39,550 nucleotides of DNA from a virus. A program made the translations under genes and the position numbers. The notes beneath the pieces were generated by a model that saw nothing but the letters and a program-made list of their open reading frames with translations, was not told where the DNA came from and searched no databases. The stretch is from IMG/VR virus record IMGVR_UViG_3300020000_000037, positions 1-39,550 of that record; one strand, written 5' to 3'. This document shows positions 1 to 39,550 of the stretch, in pieces (position 1 is the stretch's first letter; each line of letters opens with the position of its first letter).

Positions 1-621
1 AAACTTAATAGCAAGAGTAGCATTTTGGGCCAACATACCACTGTAGTATGGGTCTCTATAAATAAGATTCATTGAATAACCGTCTTGATTAATATGAGTT
101 ACCGCTTGTTTTCCTAGAACTGGATTATAATAAATATCCTGTCCATTAGCAGATGTACCGCGAGCAACTGGATTTTCAGAACTTGTAAGAATACGGATAT
201 TAAATACATTTCCGTATTCGGATGGCAAAGCAGAGGCATTAGTCGGATAATCCCACTGGTTTTTAAACCCTTGGCCAACCATACCATCAAAATCAGTCTG
301 AAGTTCTGTTGAAGCTAACATAAAATAGCTCGATCTCACAGGTCCAGTTCCAAAGCGATCCATGCCTTCTATACCAGACATAAACTTATATGCATTATTA
401 GTATCTAATGTGGTTGCAAGCAAACTAAAGTCAGTTACACCGTAGTTTGTTGGGTTATCCCCGTTTCCACCACCACCTGCGTTTATTTCCGATGCTGCGC
501 TGATGATATAGTCGCGGAGGATCAAATCCTCTGCTTGCCGCATCGCGACTGCTAAACGCTCTGACACCCAAGCTAATACGCCTTCCTGATCTTGTAAGAT
601 TACCTGCTCATTAATAATGCA
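1..621 (-). CDS. Major capsid protein, exon 2, second allele (3'-truncated by contig end)
   Basis: This is the C-terminal exon of an N4-gp56-like major capsid protein. It enters from the intron at the TGC codon at 621-619 and reads IINEQ, then a long helical segment (SERLAVAMRQAEDLILRDY), and leaves the window at position 1 without a stop. It aligns gap-free with 38904-39524 and differs at about 23 sites in the first 520 bases. Most changes are synonymous; about five alter residues (for example A/S, T/N, A/T, P/Q, N/S), four of them clustered near 205-245. The pattern is that of a functional gene under purifying selection, so it is a strain variant and not a decayed copy. Splice phase is inferred from the intron analysis. 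Confidence 0.85.
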
Positions 622-647
622 CTAACTGTTACTTTTATGACCAGTGA
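1..647. repeat. Left copy of the 647-bp end repeat
   Basis: Positions 1-647 correspond to 38904-39550 with no gaps. Positions 521-647 (127 nt) are identical to 39424-39550; the first mismatch lies directly at 520/39423. The rest is about 95-96% identical by eye count. An exact 127-nt match with a diverged flank is what a de Bruijn assembler run at k=127 leaves when two strain variants merge, so this is better read as a graph junction than as a biological terminal repeat. Confidence 0.85.
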
Positions 648-1915
648 ACAAGAGCGGTCGTTTTTGTTACTCTTGTTACACTGGCGGAGAGTCTTGTCAT
701 TCCTCTCTCAATGGCTCTCACCACTGTTCAGACTATATCTTCACTTCTGCGGTTACAGAGTGCCTGGCGTGTAGTCGTTGAGGGTTCCCTTGCGGGCCTT
801 CCCTGCTGATTGCCCATTGTTACATCTATCAGATTGTCACACTATGGTACTGATAGCTTTAGGGGTTTCCAGCATATAGCCAAGTTTTATGTGATCTCTA
901 ACCTTGTTGAGATTCACACAACAGGCTGCCACTCTTATTTAAAGCCACAATTCTTTGGTAACAAGATTCTCTAAATTTTAATTCTTCTTCAGAAATTCCA
1001 GCTTTGCAATATTTAGTATTTTCACTATTTTTGCAAAAGTCCAAAACAATTGATGCTTGATCTTTTTTTTCCTTGAGATAAGGAAGAATGCTTTCTATGA
1101 ATTCTGCTGAATCCTGTTTCTTGCCTATACTCCAAGCATAATGAAAACCACGAACACAACTTTTGTTTTTGGCAACACATACAGTTCCATAAACACAGTT
1201 TTTTCTTATGTGATTAATAACATCTAAAGATGCCATCGACATTTGAATGCATGGAATATATCTAAGATTCTTTGTATCAGCCTGTCCTCTTTGTCTCTTA
1301 ACAGAAAATGATCCGTCTGTATCCATAATACCAGCAACATAAGCCCAAAAAGCCTCATCTTCAGTATTTAAATAGGTTTTTGCAACCATTGAAATGTTCT
1401 GACGATAAGCCTCATCGTTTAATGTACCTAGTTTTATATGATATTTTTCTCTTCCCATTATCTGTTCAGGACTAAGAGTTATTCCTCTTACAAATGGATT
1501 TTTTTCAATATATTCAGATAAAACTTCAGCTCTTATTTTCTTATAGACTAGAAATTGCGAGATTTTCAGTAAAAAGTCTTTGCAGTTCTCTGATCCTTTT
1601 AATCTCCAATAATGAAGAGGAGAATGATGAGGCATCTTTGGCTTTAAAGATCCTACGATTCCTCCAAAATCATTTTTGAAAGATGAAATTAAAGTGCCAA
1701 ATTTTTTGACGAGCTGGACAAAAGGAATATATAAATTCCCTTCCTTAACTAGATAGATTGCTCCATCTCCGTCGATTGCTCCAGCAGCATATGAATACAT
1801 TAATTCTTCCTTACTTCTTTCCATGTTATCCCCCTTGGTTTTAGTTTCTCCTAGAAAAGATAACACGTTGTATATATTAAGATCAAGTCAATTATGCAGC
1901 TAATTGTTGTGAGTA
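622..1915 (-). ncRNA. Group I self-splicing intron in the major capsid gene
   Basis: The minus strand carries the conserved group I core 3' of the endonuclease gene: a Q-like element AATCAGCAGG (about 808-817), an R-like element TCAACGACTA (about 773-782) and an S-like element AAGATATAGTCTGA (about 728-741). GACTA and TAGTC can form P7. A 14-bp two-part hairpin follows (CCAGTG/CACTGG enclosing AACAAGAG/CTCTTGTT). Exon AAGTT (1920-1916) pairs with GACTT (1889-1885), giving the obligatory U.G pair at the 5' splice site; the intron would end at G622. Splicing removes the in-frame TAA at 1894-1892 and the TAG at 624-622 and joins GEEV to CIINEQ. G620 is an alternative 3' end. No clear P10 was found. 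Confidence 0.88.
898..1824 (-). CDS. LAGLIDADG homing endonuclease encoded in the intron
   Basis: A predicted 308-residue monomeric LAGLIDADG endonuclease. Two dodecapeptide motifs are visible: AAGAIDGDGAIY near the N-terminus and VAGIMDTDGSFSV about 165 residues later, each with the catalytic aspartate, which is the normal spacing of the two-domain family. The start is the ATG at 1824, preceded by a strong ribosome site (AAGGGGG); the frame is open further upstream without a better start. The gene lies in the 5' part of the intron, before the conserved core, and ends just before it. Such enzymes cut intronless capsid alleles and drive homing. In characterised phage introns HNH and GIY-YIG enzymes are more usual. 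Confidence 0.93.
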   Translation of the reverse strand: MERSKEELMYSYAAGAIDGDGAIYLVKEGNLYIPFVQLVKKFGTLISSFKNDFGGIVGSLKPKMPHHSPLHYWRLKGSENCKDFLLKISQFLVYKKIRAEVLSEYIEKNPFVRGITLSPEQIMGREKYHIKLGTLNDEAYRQNISMVAKTYLNTEDEAFWAYVAGIMDTDGSFSVKRQRGQADTKNLRYIPCIQMSMASLDVINHIRKNCVYGTVCVAKNKSCVRGFHYAWSIGKKQDSAEFIESILPYLKEKKDQASIVLDFCKNSENTKYCKAGISEEELKFRESCYQRIVALNKSGSLLCESQQG

Positions 1916-2194
1916 AACTTCTTCACCTGTTCCAAAAAATGCCGTCTGCGCATCCACAATATCGCGTTGTGGTATCTGCGCTGGCGGATCAATACCACTA
2001 TTACCCAACTGTACAGTTGGCGGTTGCAGTGCGCGAGGACGCATAAAGCGCATGGTAGTTCCTCCATGAGCGGGCATGCTAGCTTTGTCGCAAACTGTAA
2101 TGTAATTCATTGATGGAGTAGGCACATAAAGCATTGCAGGCGCTAAACTCTGCAATATCATGGGACCTAAATTCCCCGTGTTTGTGATTTGCAT
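1916..2194 (-). CDS. Major capsid protein, exon 1
   Basis: The N-terminal 93 codons of the capsid protein, beginning MQITNTGN and ending FFGTGEEV at the inferred splice site. The N-terminus is followed by the HGGTTMRFMRPRAL segment typical of the N4-gp56 capsid family (lysine/glycine loop, then a beta strand). The start at 2194 follows AAGGAG at 5-nt spacing; a GTG at 2200 is possible but less well placed. Without splicing the frame runs nine more codons (YSQQLAA) to TAA at 1892. Spliced to exon 2 (39524-38829 across the contig ends) the product is about 324 residues. The scaffold gene lies upstream and decoration-like genes downstream, as expected for a head module. Confidence 0.88.
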
Positions 2195-6210: not shown

Positions 6211-6537
6211 CTAGGATTGAAATCTTTTAAATCGCATAAAAGGACCCGCATTTGATAAACGGGACATTTTCTTAGCGTTTTCAATCGCTTTTTCATAGAT
6301 CTCTTTTTTAATTTTCGCCCGCTCATGATATCCTCTATGAGTTATTAAAAGTCTTTCAATTTCTCTTTTTTTCCCAACATCTTGATTTCTGATTTTTTTA
6401 TTTGCTAATTTTATAATTTCAGACAATTCATAATCTAAATTTTGTAATTTGTCAAAACAACCAAATTTTAATAAATTTTGATTAAATGACAAATTTATAT
6501 TTGGTGGTTGCACGAATGAAGTAGTCATTTTCGTCAT
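6211..6537 (-). CDS. Hypothetical basic helical protein downstream of the tRNA
   Basis: A 108-residue basic protein rich in lysine and arginine, beginning MTKMTTSFVQPPNINLSF and ending in RLSNAGPFMRFKRFQS. The frame is open upstream to 6606, but that part overlaps the tRNA gene; AAGGA five nt before the ATG at 6537 supports the shorter form. Helices in the middle (SEIIKLANKKI..., ERAKIKKEIYEKAIENAKK) may form a coiled coil. Function unknown; it follows the tRNA by 27 bp and is probably on the same transcript. Confidence 0.6.
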   Translation of the reverse strand: MTKMTTSFVQPPNINLSFNQNLLKFGCFDKLQNLDYELSEIIKLANKKIRNQDVGKKREIERLLITHRGYHERAKIKKEIYEKAIENAKKMSRLSNAGPFMRFKRFQS

Positions 6538-6564
6538 TTTTTTCCTTGCATAAACTCCTTTTAT

Positions 6565-6636
6565 CGCCCATGGCAGGTCTTGCACCAACAGCCTCCCGAT
6601 TGACAATCGGGCGTTCTACTTTTGAACTACATGGGC
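6565..6636 (-). tRNA. tRNA-Asp (anticodon GTC)
   Basis: The minus strand folds as a cloverleaf: 7-bp acceptor GCCCATG/CATGGGC, TA, D-stem GTTC/GAAC with loop AAAAGTA, anticodon stem CCCGA/TCGGG with loop TTGTCAA (anticodon GTC), a 5-nt variable loop, T-stem GTTGG/CCTGC with loop TGCAAGA, and discriminator G at 6565. No CCA is encoded. The D-loop lacks GG, and the T-loop lacks TTC and has a T-T mismatch in its stem, so the usual elbow contacts are missing. Confidence 0.82.
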
Positions 6637-17373: not shown

Positions 17374-17576
17374 TTTATGAAGATGACAGCCATTTGATAG
17401 ATGATGAATCTATTATCAGGGAAAAAATGGACGCGTATAGGGAAAGGATTATAAATAGGCTTTCCCCTTTAGAGCGTTTAGCTATTCTTGATGACTATAA
17501 AGAGTTTAAGAAACTGTATATTGAGGAACTTTGCGAAGAAATGGCACAAAATCACTTTACGGGGATATATGAATAA
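17370..17576 (+). CDS. Hypothetical early protein (68 residues)
   Basis: A 68-residue acidic helical protein: MIYEDDSHLIDDESIIREKM, then RLSPLERLAILDDYKEFKKLY. It begins on the ATGA overlap with the preceding gene and its last codons overlap the ERF gene start (17569). No family recognised; position suggests an accessory to the recombination genes. Confidence 0.6.
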   Translation: MIYEDDSHLIDDESIIREKMDAYRERIINRLSPLERLAILDDYKEFKKLYIEELCEEMAQNHFTGIYE

Positions 17577-18195
17577 CCAATCAAATGAAATAAATGAATT
17601 AGCAATCGCCTTGGCTAAGTGCCAGGGTGAAATGGAATCAGCAAAGAAAGATTCCGACAACCCTTTTTTTAAATCTAAATACGCGGATTTAAGTTCGGTA
17701 TGGGCGACATGCAGAATACCCCTAACTAAAAATGGTTTATCCATAGCGCAAACTTTAGAGACTATAAACGATAAGCTGCATTTAAATACTTTGCTATTGC
17801 ATTCCTCAGGTCAATGGATAAAATCGACTATGCCGATTATATCAGCTAAACAGGATGCGCAAGGAATGGGTTCAGGTATCACGTATGCAAGAAGATATTG
17901 CTTAAGTGCAATAATAGGCATATCACAAGATGATGACGATGGCGAAGCTGCTGTGGACAGAAATAAAGCAAATAGAAAGGTTGCCGATATTATTCCCATT
18001 ATTGGAACAGCAAAAGTGAAACAGCTAATAGAATTGTCCGATCAATGCGATAACTCATATATGGAGAAATTATTTTCATATTTGGCATCATTGGGAATAA
18101 AAGATTTTTCCATGATCAAAGAAGACATGTTCCCAAAAATATTAAAAGGGATGATGGCAAATGCGCAAGCTAATGAAAAAGAAGTTGAAACATGA
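17569..18195 (+). CDS. ERF-family single-strand annealing protein
   Basis: A 208-residue protein of the ERF superfamily, phage recombinases that anneal complementary single strands. Diagnostic blocks: NPFFKSKYADLSSVWATCRIPLTKNGLSI (about 25-55), then QWIKSTMPI, and GMGSGITYARRYCLSAIIGI followed by an acidic DDDDGEA. The start at 17569 (MNNQSNEI) is chosen because the longer frame would lie wholly inside the previous gene. It overlaps the YqaJ gene by 4 bp. The pair is the usual exonuclease/annealase module for concatemer formation and genome circularisation. Confidence 0.92.
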   Translation: MNNQSNEINELAIALAKCQGEMESAKKDSDNPFFKSKYADLSSVWATCRIPLTKNGLSIAQTLETINDKLHLNTLLLHSSGQWIKSTMPIISAKQDAQGMGSGITYARRYCLSAIIGISQDDDDGEAAVDRNKANRKVADIIPIIGTAKVKQLIELSDQCDNSYMEKLFSYLASLGIKDFSMIKEDMFPKILKGMMANAQANEKEVET

Positions 18196-23538: not shown

Positions 23539-23759
23539 TATTCCTCTGTATTTTGCGGATTTTCTGCATTTTTTTCGGTTTCTTCAGCTTCTTGAGCTTG
23601 TTTTTGCTGCATCAATATATTGTCTTCGACTTGACAAGTATATTGGATGAATTTGTTTAAGGCATCTTTGACATGTCCGATAGGTGCGTTGTTATCGCAA
23701 GTGAAATGAAAAAGTTTGCCTTCAACGACATGTTCCATTTGTAGTGTGTTTTTTAGCAT
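23538..23759 (-). CDS. Small conserved tail-module protein (73 residues)
   Basis: A 73-residue protein with a small beta part (MEHVVEGKLFHFTCDNNAPI) and a helical, acidic glutamine-rich tail ending ENPQNTEE. The start at 23759 (ATG, GGGGACACAT upstream) is preferred to TTG 23774. Its start lies in the end of the HNH gene (7-bp overlap), so the endonuclease was inserted just before it. Function unknown. Confidence 0.6.
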   Translation of the reverse strand: MLKNTLQMEHVVEGKLFHFTCDNNAPIGHVKDALNKFIQYTCQVEDNILMQQKQAQEAEETEKNAENPQNTEE

Positions 23760-24391
23760 GTTATGTGTCCCCAACTTATGTTATTTTTTATTCTAAGTAT
23801 CGTTGTTTTTGAAACAGGAAATTCCTTGCTAATTGAATAACATGAATGTCCATCTTTTATCAATTTTTTTATTTCTCTAACTTGATCCTCATTAAGAATA
23901 GCTGAACCATTCTCGATACCTTTTTTAATCGGAGGACTTACCCAATTTGCTCTACCTTTAGCGATTTTATCATCATTATTTTGTTTATGTGTTCCCAACC
24001 ATAAATGATCGGGATTAGTACATATAGGATTGTCGCAAGAATGGCAAACATGCATCCTATTGGGAATAGATCCTTTATGTATTATCCATGACGCCTTATG
24101 TCCTCTATCCGGACCTATGGTTTTTCTGCAAGACATGACAGGATATCCGCCTTTAGCAATAGGGCCATTCCATCCCCAACATCCCTCATATCTAATAACA
24201 TGTTTTTCAAAACTTTTCTTAAGTCTTTCAAACCTCTCTTCATCCGTCAATTCAGCGATTCTGATTTGCCCCCCTGGCCTAAATCCTGTATGTCCTCTAC
24301 AGGCATGACTACAAAATCTTGGTATCGGCCTTCCTTTCATTTGATAAAAAGGAAATTTTTTACCACACTTAACACAAATTAAATCTTCCAT
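23753..24391 (-). CDS. HNH homing endonuclease with C-terminal helix-turn-helix
   Basis: A 212-residue freestanding HNH_3-type endonuclease. It has an N-terminal zinc knuckle (CVKCGKK...CSHAC), a central HNH core HVCHSCDNPICTNPDHLWLGT, and a C-terminal HTH (SCYSISKEFPVSKTTILRIK). The ATG at 24391 is preceded by AGGAGG at five nt; the frame is open to 24415, without its own site. It sits between two tail fibre genes and probably moves by cutting unoccupied sites. A related C-terminal remnant is at 31410-31493. Confidence 0.93.
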   Translation of the reverse strand: MEDLICVKCGKKFPFYQMKGRPIPRFCSHACRGHTGFRPGGQIRIAELTDEERFERLKKSFEKHVIRYEGCWGWNGPIAKGGYPVMSCRKTIGPDRGHKASWIIHKGSIPNRMHVCHSCDNPICTNPDHLWLGTHKQNNDDKIAKGRANWVSPPIKKGIENGSAILNEDQVREIKKLIKDGHSCYSISKEFPVSKTTILRIKNNISWGHITC

Positions 24392-24447
24392 ATAACCCTC
24401 CTTGGTTAGATACATTCTAACCTAAAAGGGTCATTTAGGTACAGCGC

Positions 24448-38828: not shown

Positions 38829-39524
38829 TTAAAGTGATGCACTCAATCGAGTTGCTAAAGAAATTCTGATGGCTGTATCCTGCGTTAAGGCTTGCGCTTG
38901 CGCAAACTTAATAGCAAGAGTAGCATTTTGGGCCAACATACCACTGTAGTATGGGTCTCTATAAATAAGATTCATCGAATAACCGTCTTGATTAATATGG
39001 GTTACCGCTTGTTTTCCTAGAACTGGATTATAATAAATATCCTGTCCATTAGCAGATGTACCGCGAGCAACTGGATTTTCAGAGCTAGTCAGAATACGGA
39101 TATTAAATACACTTCCGTATTCGGATTGCAAAGCAGAGGTATTATTCGGATAATCCCACTGGTTTTTAAACCCTTGGCCAACCATACCATCAAAATCAGT
39201 CTGAAGTTCTGTTGAAGCTAACATAAAATAGCTAGATCTCACAGGTCCAGTTCCAAAACGATCCATACCTTCTATACCAGACATGAACTTATATGAATTA
39301 TTAGTATCTAATGTTGTTGCAAGCAAACTAAAGTCGGTTACACCATAGTTTGTTGGGTTATCCCCGTTTCCACCACCACCTGCGTTTATTTCCGATGCTG
39401 CGCTGATGATGTAATCCCGTAAAATCAAATCCTCTGCTTGCCGCATCGCGACTGCTAAACGCTCTGACACCCAAGCTAATACGCCTTCCTGATCTTGTAA
39501 GATTACCTGCTCATTAATAATGCA
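38829..39524 (-). CDS. Major capsid protein, exon 2 (main allele)
   Basis: The 231-residue C-terminal part of the N4-gp56-like capsid protein: from TGC (39524) through IINEQVILQDQEGVL, a long helix, NAGGGGNGDNPTNY, and the folded part ending IRISLATRLSASL. It has no start of its own: upstream frame reads TAG at the splice site, because the intron precedes it. Exon 1 is at 1916-2194. The copy at 1-621 is a second allele. Decoration genes follow 12 bp downstream. Confidence 0.88.
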   Translation of the reverse strand, partial: CIINEQVILQDQEGVLAWVSERLAVAMRQAEDLILRDYIISAASEINAGGGGNGDNPTNYGVTDFSLLATTLDTNNSYKFMSGIEGMDRFGTGPVRSSYFMLASTELQTDFDGMVGQGFKNQWDYPNNTSALQSEYGSVFNIRILTSSENPVARGTSANGQDIYYNPVLGKQAVTHINQDGYSMNLIYRDPYYSGMLAQNATLAIKFAQAQALTQDTAIRISLATRLSASL

Positions 39525-39550
39525 CTAACTGTTACTTTTATGACCAGTGA
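38904..39550. repeat. Right copy of the 647-bp end repeat
   Basis: Same as 1-647 (see there): identical at 39424-39550, with about 23 substitutions in 38904-39423. The last 26 bases (39525-39550) are the 3' end of the group I intron. Confidence 0.85.

What the first reader, a model, noticed from the sequence alone, without database searches (positions are those of the whole stretch)
622..2194. Group I intron with LAGLIDADG endonuclease splits the major capsid gene
Seen: two capsid fragments each have a stop or no start at the break, and the space between holds Q, R and S core elements and an intact double-motif LAGLIDADG gene. A U.G pair at 1916/1889 defines the 5' site and G622 the 3' site, restoring one frame. 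Known: phage introns usually sit in replication, nucleotide or lysis genes, and mostly carry HNH or GIY-YIG enzymes. Inference: capsid production depends on splicing. It is unusual to risk the most abundant virion protein this way.
Basis: partly seen in the sequence, partly recalled or inferred. Interest (0 to 1): 0.82.

Follow-up and report, generated by a model that had tools for sequence, protein, structure and literature searches.

The report
Capsid-gene group I intron encoding degradation tag
A phage's capsid gene is split by a self-splicing intron that, if it fails to splice, would end the broken capsid protein with a "destroy me" tag, and relatives carry up to six such introns plus tiny introns that have a splice guide but no catalytic core.

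Summary
A group I intron (Rfam Intron_gpI, 76.8 bits, E 5.8e-18) carrying an intact double-motif LAGLIDADG gene interrupts the major capsid gene. The 3' site is right. The 5' site is 9 nt upstream of the one proposed: intron 1924..622, guide 929..920 (P1 6 bp plus U1925.G926, P10 3 bp), giving FFGTG|CIINEQ exactly as in intronless relatives. Capsid introns with LAGLIDADG genes are already known (mycobacteriophage LittleE), so that part is a new member of a known kind. Two further patterns are not described in anything I found. (1) Reading from the capsid frame into the unspliced intron gives ...EEVYSQQLAA*, an ssrA-like C-degron. Across 122 related capsid introns the true frame ends in Ala-Ala 58 times, against 1 in 244 for the other two frames. 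(2) Relatives carry 29-68 nt "mini-introns" in capsid and portal genes. They have a covarying P1/P10 guide and a terminal G but no room for a core, and each found in an untruncated gene lies upstream of a full group I intron. I propose that the introns encode a degron that clears truncated capsid, and that mini-introns borrow a neighbour's ribozyme. Splicing and degradation are inferred.

The parts
1925..2194 (-). Capsid exon 1 (90 codons), ends ...FFGTG (GGAACAGGT)
   Evidence: spliced alignment to intronless relatives; PHROG major head protein for the joined product
622..1924 (-). Group I intron, 1303 nt, ends in G622
   Evidence: Rfam RF00028, spliced alignment, same site in L236/L162 and L237
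1892..1924 (-). In-frame read-through tail EEVYSQQLAA followed by TAA (LAA codons 1903..1895, stop 1894..1892): putative ssrA-like C-degron
   Evidence: relatives EEVYSYLLAA* and EEVYSYEVSA*
898..1824 (-). Double-motif LAGLIDADG homing endonuclease gene inside the P1 loop; its last codons overlap the guide
   Evidence: Pfam LAGLIDADG_1 E 5.7e-4, just below cutoff; PHROG endonuclease 5.9e-27; I-MsoI 8.8e-5
920..929 (-). Internal guide GCA.G.CCUGUU: CCUGUU with exon AACAGG, G926 with U1925, GCA with exon 2 UGC
   Evidence: identical in L237
709..951 (-). Catalytic core matched by the Rfam group I model (full model 1-253)
   Evidence: folding z-score -3.7 for 622-951
1..621 (-). Capsid exon 2 (CIINEQ...), cut by the contig start
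38829..39524 (-). Capsid exon 2, complete copy at the other contig end (strain variant of 1-621)
   Evidence: 624/647 identical over the overlap; the reading frame ends at its own stop codon at 38829
39525..39550 (-). Last 26 nt of the same intron at the other contig end, so that variant also has the intron

Best explanation
The capsid gene carries a mobile group I intron at codon 90 (1924..622). The RNA should fold with exon 1 paired to the guide 929..920 across a ~1 kb P1 loop holding the LAGLIDADG gene, be cut after U1925 and joined at U621, restoring the 321-residue capsid protein. Ribosomes that translate unspliced mRNA run from exon 1 straight into EEVYSQQLAA*, so the 90-residue capsid fragment would carry an Ala-Ala C-terminus of the ssrA type and be destroyed by ClpXP before it can poison assembly. 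In relatives that have several introns the same logic appears repeatedly. Where the core intron stands close behind, the degron is often carried by a separate 29-68 nt mini-intron that has only a guide and a terminal G and is probably removed by the neighbouring intron's core. Shown here: intron anatomy, corrected junction, in-frame tail and its frame-specific recurrence, guide covariation, linkage of mini-introns to core introns. Inferred: splicing, proteolysis, core sharing.
For: Rfam hit over the whole model. Intronless relatives and spliced alignment fix the site. Guide/P10 match, same guide in L237. 18 compact relatives' introns at many capsid sites fold as group I: P1 with invariant U.G in 18/18 and 35 of 40 pairs with compensatory changes. 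Read-through peptide ends in Ala-Ala in 58/122 introns in the true frame, 0/122 and 1/122 in the other frames (Fisher 9e-32). Core introns beyond codon 140: 17/20 against 0 and 0. Core introns before codon 50 stop within 3 codons in 12/13 and never end AA, as expected if short fragments are harmless. All 20 mini-introns whose stop lies in the next exon use the codon (NTA) that creates LAA-TAA, against 5/55 intronless genes (p 7e-14). Two RT-PCR-proven introns outside the group also end this way: LittleE ...ATAAA* and BAKA ...LAAAAA*. Terminal Ala-Ala is the main ClpXP determinant of the ssrA tag (PMC7652416).
Against: No RNA reads or protein data. Host and its proteases unknown. The tail rule is not universal: T4 td, T4 nrdB and Tuc2009 capsid introns lack it. 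Relatives share ancestry, so the p-values overstate independence, though intron sites and sequences differ widely. The Pfam LAGLIDADG score is just below its cutoff.
Confidence: 0.8

Rival explanations
1. The LAA tail has no degradation role: in-frame stops near the 5' end only keep ribosomes from disturbing ribozyme folding (the accepted view), and Ala-Ala is a by-product of conserved RNA such as GCAGCCUGA in the core or CTGGCTGCATAA in the exon.
For: In-frame stops in many group I introns are already explained this way (PMC3984707). Some tails do use the conserved core element CAGCCUGA.
Against: A plain stop needs no Ala-Ala. 5'-proximal introns with the same core stop at once, while distal ones stay open to reach AA. 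Tails are made from unrelated sequences (LLAA before P5, KAA at the core, LAA in mini-introns, EEVYSQQLAA here), always in the true frame.
Confidence: 0.2
2. One reading: 5' site after 1916 with guide 1893..1889 (GACUU), spliced protein with EEV added.
For: 5 bp with a terminal U.G can be drawn; reading frame is also restored.
Against: None of the uninterrupted relatives has EEV; GAAGAAGTTTACTC is conserved as intron sequence in L236/L162 and L237, which share the GGT|TGC site; the guide next to the core pairs better and also gives P10.
Confidence: 0.03
3. Capsid is not reconstituted: the gene is broken and two proteins are made, or the ribosome bypasses the insert.
For: No transcript data.
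Against: Exon 2 has no start at the junction and stays conserved at about 86% identity; a 1.3-kb bypass is unknown. For mini-introns, bypass would need matching take-off and landing codons, absent at capsid site 104 (GGT to ATG/TTG) and impossible at split-codon site 92, while a guide spanning both exon edges is what group I splicing predicts.
Confidence: 0.03
4. Mini-introns are removed by something other than a neighbouring group I core, for example a protein enzyme or a trans-acting ribozyme elsewhere.
For: No core in 29-68 nt, and no direct evidence of who catalyses.
Against: The guide has exact P1/P10 geometry with U.G at the junction. Mini-introns occur with a full group I intron downstream in the same gene in every untruncated case (portal 7/9 core genes, 0/36 genes without).
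Confidence: 0.25

Closest known systems
Mycobacteriophage LittleE major-capsid intron (PMC3706429)
   Same: Group I-type intron with a LAGLIDADG-type gene in a major capsid gene; U before the 5' site, G at the end; read-through also ends in Ala-Ala-Ala
   Different: Different phage and host lineage; endonuclease on the opposite strand; intron ~820 bp; the tail was not commented on in the passages read; no mini-introns reported
Lactococcus phage Tuc2009 mp4 (major head protein) intron
   Same: Group I intron with ORF in a capsid gene
   Different: Sits at codon ~55; read-through ends FPAWS*, no degron
T4 td and nrdB introns
   Same: Phage group I introns with homing endonucleases and in-frame stops
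   Different: In nucleotide-metabolism genes, GIY-YIG/HNH enzymes, no Ala-Ala tail
ssrA/tmRNA degradation tag
   Same: C-terminal ...LAA as proteolysis signal on incomplete proteins
   Different: Here the tag would be encoded by the intron, not added by tmRNA
Trans-splicing (split) group I introns
   Same: P1/P10 and core may lie on separate RNA segments (from general knowledge)
   Different: There one intron's own core is split; the mini-introns here have no core at all and lie beside a complete second intron

Membership tests
Group I intron (window, 1924..622) | Conserved core matching the group I covariance model | tested here: met
   RF00028 76.8 bits (cutoff 50), model 1-253
Group I intron (window, 1924..622) | Guide with U.G at the 5' site and G at the intron end | tested here: met
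   U1925.G926, P1 6 bp, P10 3 bp, G622
Group I intron (window, 1924..622) | Intronless alleles lacking exactly this segment | tested here: met
   65 uninterrupted relatives, FFGTG|CIINEQ
Group I intron (window, 1924..622) | Splicing of RNA | not testable with these tools
   no RNA data
LAGLIDADG homing endonuclease | Two LAGLIDADG helices with acidic residues in one chain | tested here: met
   AAGAIDGDGA and VAGIMDTDGS; Pfam 21.2 bits against cutoff 23.1, slightly short; I-MsoI, I-CvuI matches
ssrA-like C-degron | Terminal Ala-Ala on an accessible tail of at least 5 residues | tested here: met
   EEVYSQQLAA, 10 residues; length requirement from PMC7652416; accessibility itself not tested
ssrA-like C-degron | Protease-dependent turnover | not testable with these tools
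   needs experiment
Mini-introns as group I introns (relatives) | P1/P10 guide with U.G and terminal G | tested here: met
   41 capsid mini-introns: summed paired bases 425 against 146+-9 after shuffling inserts and 271+-13 after swapping inserts, 0/500; 7 in portal. Weak cases L083, L097, L103
Mini-introns as group I introns (relatives) | Own catalytic core P3-P8 | tested here: not met
   29-68 nt long; so they are not filed as group I introns, only as guide-only elements that work like them
Compact neighbour introns (relatives) | Group I core with covariation | tested here: met
   P1, P3-P6, P9; 35/40 pairs covary. All fall below Rfam's cutoff

The most novel reading that the evidence does not exclude
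This phage group has a two-part splicing system. Core-less introns of 29-68 nt, made of little more than a guide, a degron-coding stretch and a terminal G, are excised by the ribozyme of the next group I intron downstream in the same transcript. Unspliced messages of capsid genes therefore nearly always yield a fragment tagged for destruction. Such non-autonomous, core-borrowing group I introns and intron-encoded degrons would both be new.
Probability: 0.55. Interest if true: 0.93.

Novelty: new variant of a known kind. Interest (0 to 1): 0.85.

Why it matters
Group I introns are usually treated as neutral passengers. A degron written into the unspliced reading frame would show how a phage can tolerate introns in its most abundant virion protein: failed splicing is cleaned up at the protein level. 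The guide-only mini-introns would, as far as I could find, be the first group I-like introns without a core, a parallel to non-autonomous transposons, and would show one ribozyme serving several introns in a message. Both ideas are testable with short transcripts and reporter tails.

Tried and rejected
Rfam at gathering threshold on relatives: no hits, but the lower-threshold search and a model built here (R1) recognise them as group I. Ribosomal bypass for mini-introns: rejected on codon and frame grounds. One large intron skipping the small exon between mini- and core intron: rejected, because that exon is conserved and the mini guide pairs with it. 'LAA is just the exon sequence in another frame': true for 20 mini-introns, but those exons have switched to the stop-making codon, and 12 others make their own stop. 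Exon-T/intron-G counts (121/122, 120/122) are not independent evidence: the alignment rewarded them, and without that reward protein alignment alone leaves the boundary undecided for many introns (57/122 unchanged). Scan with the loose codon-104 pattern gave mostly unrelated contigs. Capsid structure prediction failed (pLDDT 32), so no fold search. Host search in genome collection gave only scattered metagenome bins. No phage in INPHARED has a related capsid. Literature searches for intron-encoded degrons or core-less group I introns found nothing relevant, but only open-licence papers are held.

Full report
CHECK OF THE OBSERVATION. The window is one whole IMG/VR virus record. Its ends overlap by 647 nt at 96% identity, so the contig is a circular or permuted genome whose two ends are strain variants. 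The capsid gene spans that seam: exon 1 lies at 2194..1925, exon 2 starts at 621 and is complete at 39524..38829. The end copy also holds the last 26 nt of the intron, so both variants have it. cmscan finds one group I intron, 951..709, full model, 76.8 bits. The ORF at 1824..898 has two LAGLIDADG motifs and resembles I-MsoI/I-CvuI.

WHERE THE SPLICE SITES ARE. A scan for relatives of the capsid found 172 (80 kept). Uninterrupted ones read FFGTG|CIINEQ without extra residues. A spliced-alignment program built for this purpose puts the intron at codon 90, phase 0, 1303 nt, 1924..622. The guide GCAGCCUGUU at 929..920, directly before the core, is complementary to AACAGGU|UGC with U1925.G926. The two relatives of the endonuclease (L236, in the same record as L162, and L237; 83% identity) sit in the same gene at the same site, and the guide is identical in L237. 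The endonuclease gene thus lies in the P1 loop and its last codons overlap the guide.

INTRONS IN RELATIVES. Spliced alignment of all relatives gives 67 capsid genes without introns and 57 with one to six, the window included and re-fetched copies not merged; after removing duplicates there are 122 distinct introns at 34 position/phase combinations. Eighteen compact ones (196-225 nt) align and fold as group I: P1 with an invariant U.G, P3, P4, P5, P6 and P9, 35 of 40 pairs with compensatory change. A model from them (R1) finds group I introns in 23 of 30 records (29 chosen for capsid introns, plus the window, which has no R1 hit and is a different subtype), in 4 of 40 records without capsid introns, and at nine places near the start of the portal gene.

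THE TAIL. Translating from each exon into its intron, the peptide ends in Ala-Ala in 58 of 122 introns in the true frame, in 0 and 1 in the shifted frames (p 9e-32). The reading frame into the intron does not depend on the exact splice position, so this test is independent of boundary calls. The rule follows position. Introns before codon 50 stop at once (12/13 within three codons, none AA). Introns beyond codon 140 end AA in 17 of 20. Core introns at codons 97-122 mostly lack it (3/38 AA), but nearly all stand behind a mini-intron. The mini-introns end AA in 32 of 41, AA or VA in 39 of 41. Window: EEVYSQQLAA*; relatives: EEVYSYLLAA* and EEVYSYEVSA*. Two introns proven by RT-PCR in mycobacteriophages LittleE and BAKA (PMC3706429) also end AAA. 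T4 td, T4 nrdB and Tuc2009 do not. Ala-Ala at the C-terminus is the main ClpXP signal of the ssrA tag, and a tail of about five residues suffices (PMC7652416). An in-frame stop alone is already explained as protecting ribozyme folding (PMC3984707); the Ala-Ala is what needs explaining.

MINI-INTRONS. Pattern scans for a short insert between FFG and CIINEQ gave 34 stretches, about 30 distinct. With sites 92 and 104 there are 41 mini-introns of 29-68 nt in the capsid set, and seven more in portal genes (29-55 nt). Nearly all contain a segment complementary to both exon edges with U.G at the junction. It covaries with the exons: ACTGG/CCAGT, ACAGG/CCTGT, ACGGG/CCCGT, ACCGG/CCGGT and TTCGG/CCGAA, TTTGG/CCAAA. 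Own guides pair better than swapped ones in every permutation (0/1000 for site 88, 0/1000 for the others). Weak cases: L083, L097, L103. There is no room for P3-P8. In every untruncated gene a full intron lies downstream (capsid 9-56 codons, portal 8-19). Portal: 7 of 9 genes with a core intron have a mini-intron, 0 of 36 without (p 8e-7); capsid genes in the unselected top 80 give p 9e-5.

MECHANISM. Most likely the core intron folds, removes the mini-intron by accepting its guide duplex, and excises itself, in either order. If folding fails, neither is removed and the ribosome makes a degron-tagged fragment. An additional or alternative reading is that mini-introns are non-autonomous passengers that spread by co-conversion with the neighbour's homing. 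Who catalyses is inferred, not shown. In the window itself there is a single intron with its own core, its own guide and its own LAA tail; no mini-intron was found in its capsid gene.

LIMITS. No RNA or protein data; metagenomic contigs; shared ancestry weakens the p-values; exact boundaries use the T/G rule; mini-introns at site 88 were found by a pattern made for them; the paper library covers open-licence papers only. Splicing of the window intron is near certain from anatomy; the degron role is likely; core sharing is more likely than not.

Noticed in passing
L065-L115, L162, L221, L236-L242 (capsid genes): Capsid genes in this phage group carry up to six introns in a ~960-nt reading frame, at 34 position/phase combinations.
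   Followed up: yes
L245-L253 (portal gene 5' ends): Nine related phages have a group I intron near the start of the portal gene, seven of them with an upstream guide-only mini-intron.
   Followed up: yes
L243 (LittleE), L244 (BAKA): Read-through of two experimentally proven mycobacteriophage introns ends in Ala-Ala-Ala, apparently not remarked before.
   Followed up: partly
window 1-647 and 38904-39550: Contig ends overlap at 96% identity: circular or permuted genome closed on two strain variants.
   Followed up: partly
window 23753-24415 (-): Free-standing HNH endonuclease gene among tail or structural genes.
   Followed up: no
window 17488-18195 (+): Erf-like single-strand annealing protein, a possible partner for double-strand-break homing.
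   Followed up: no
window 6565-6636 (-): tRNA gene (Rfam 60 bits) overlapping the start of the ORF 6211-6606.
   Followed up: no
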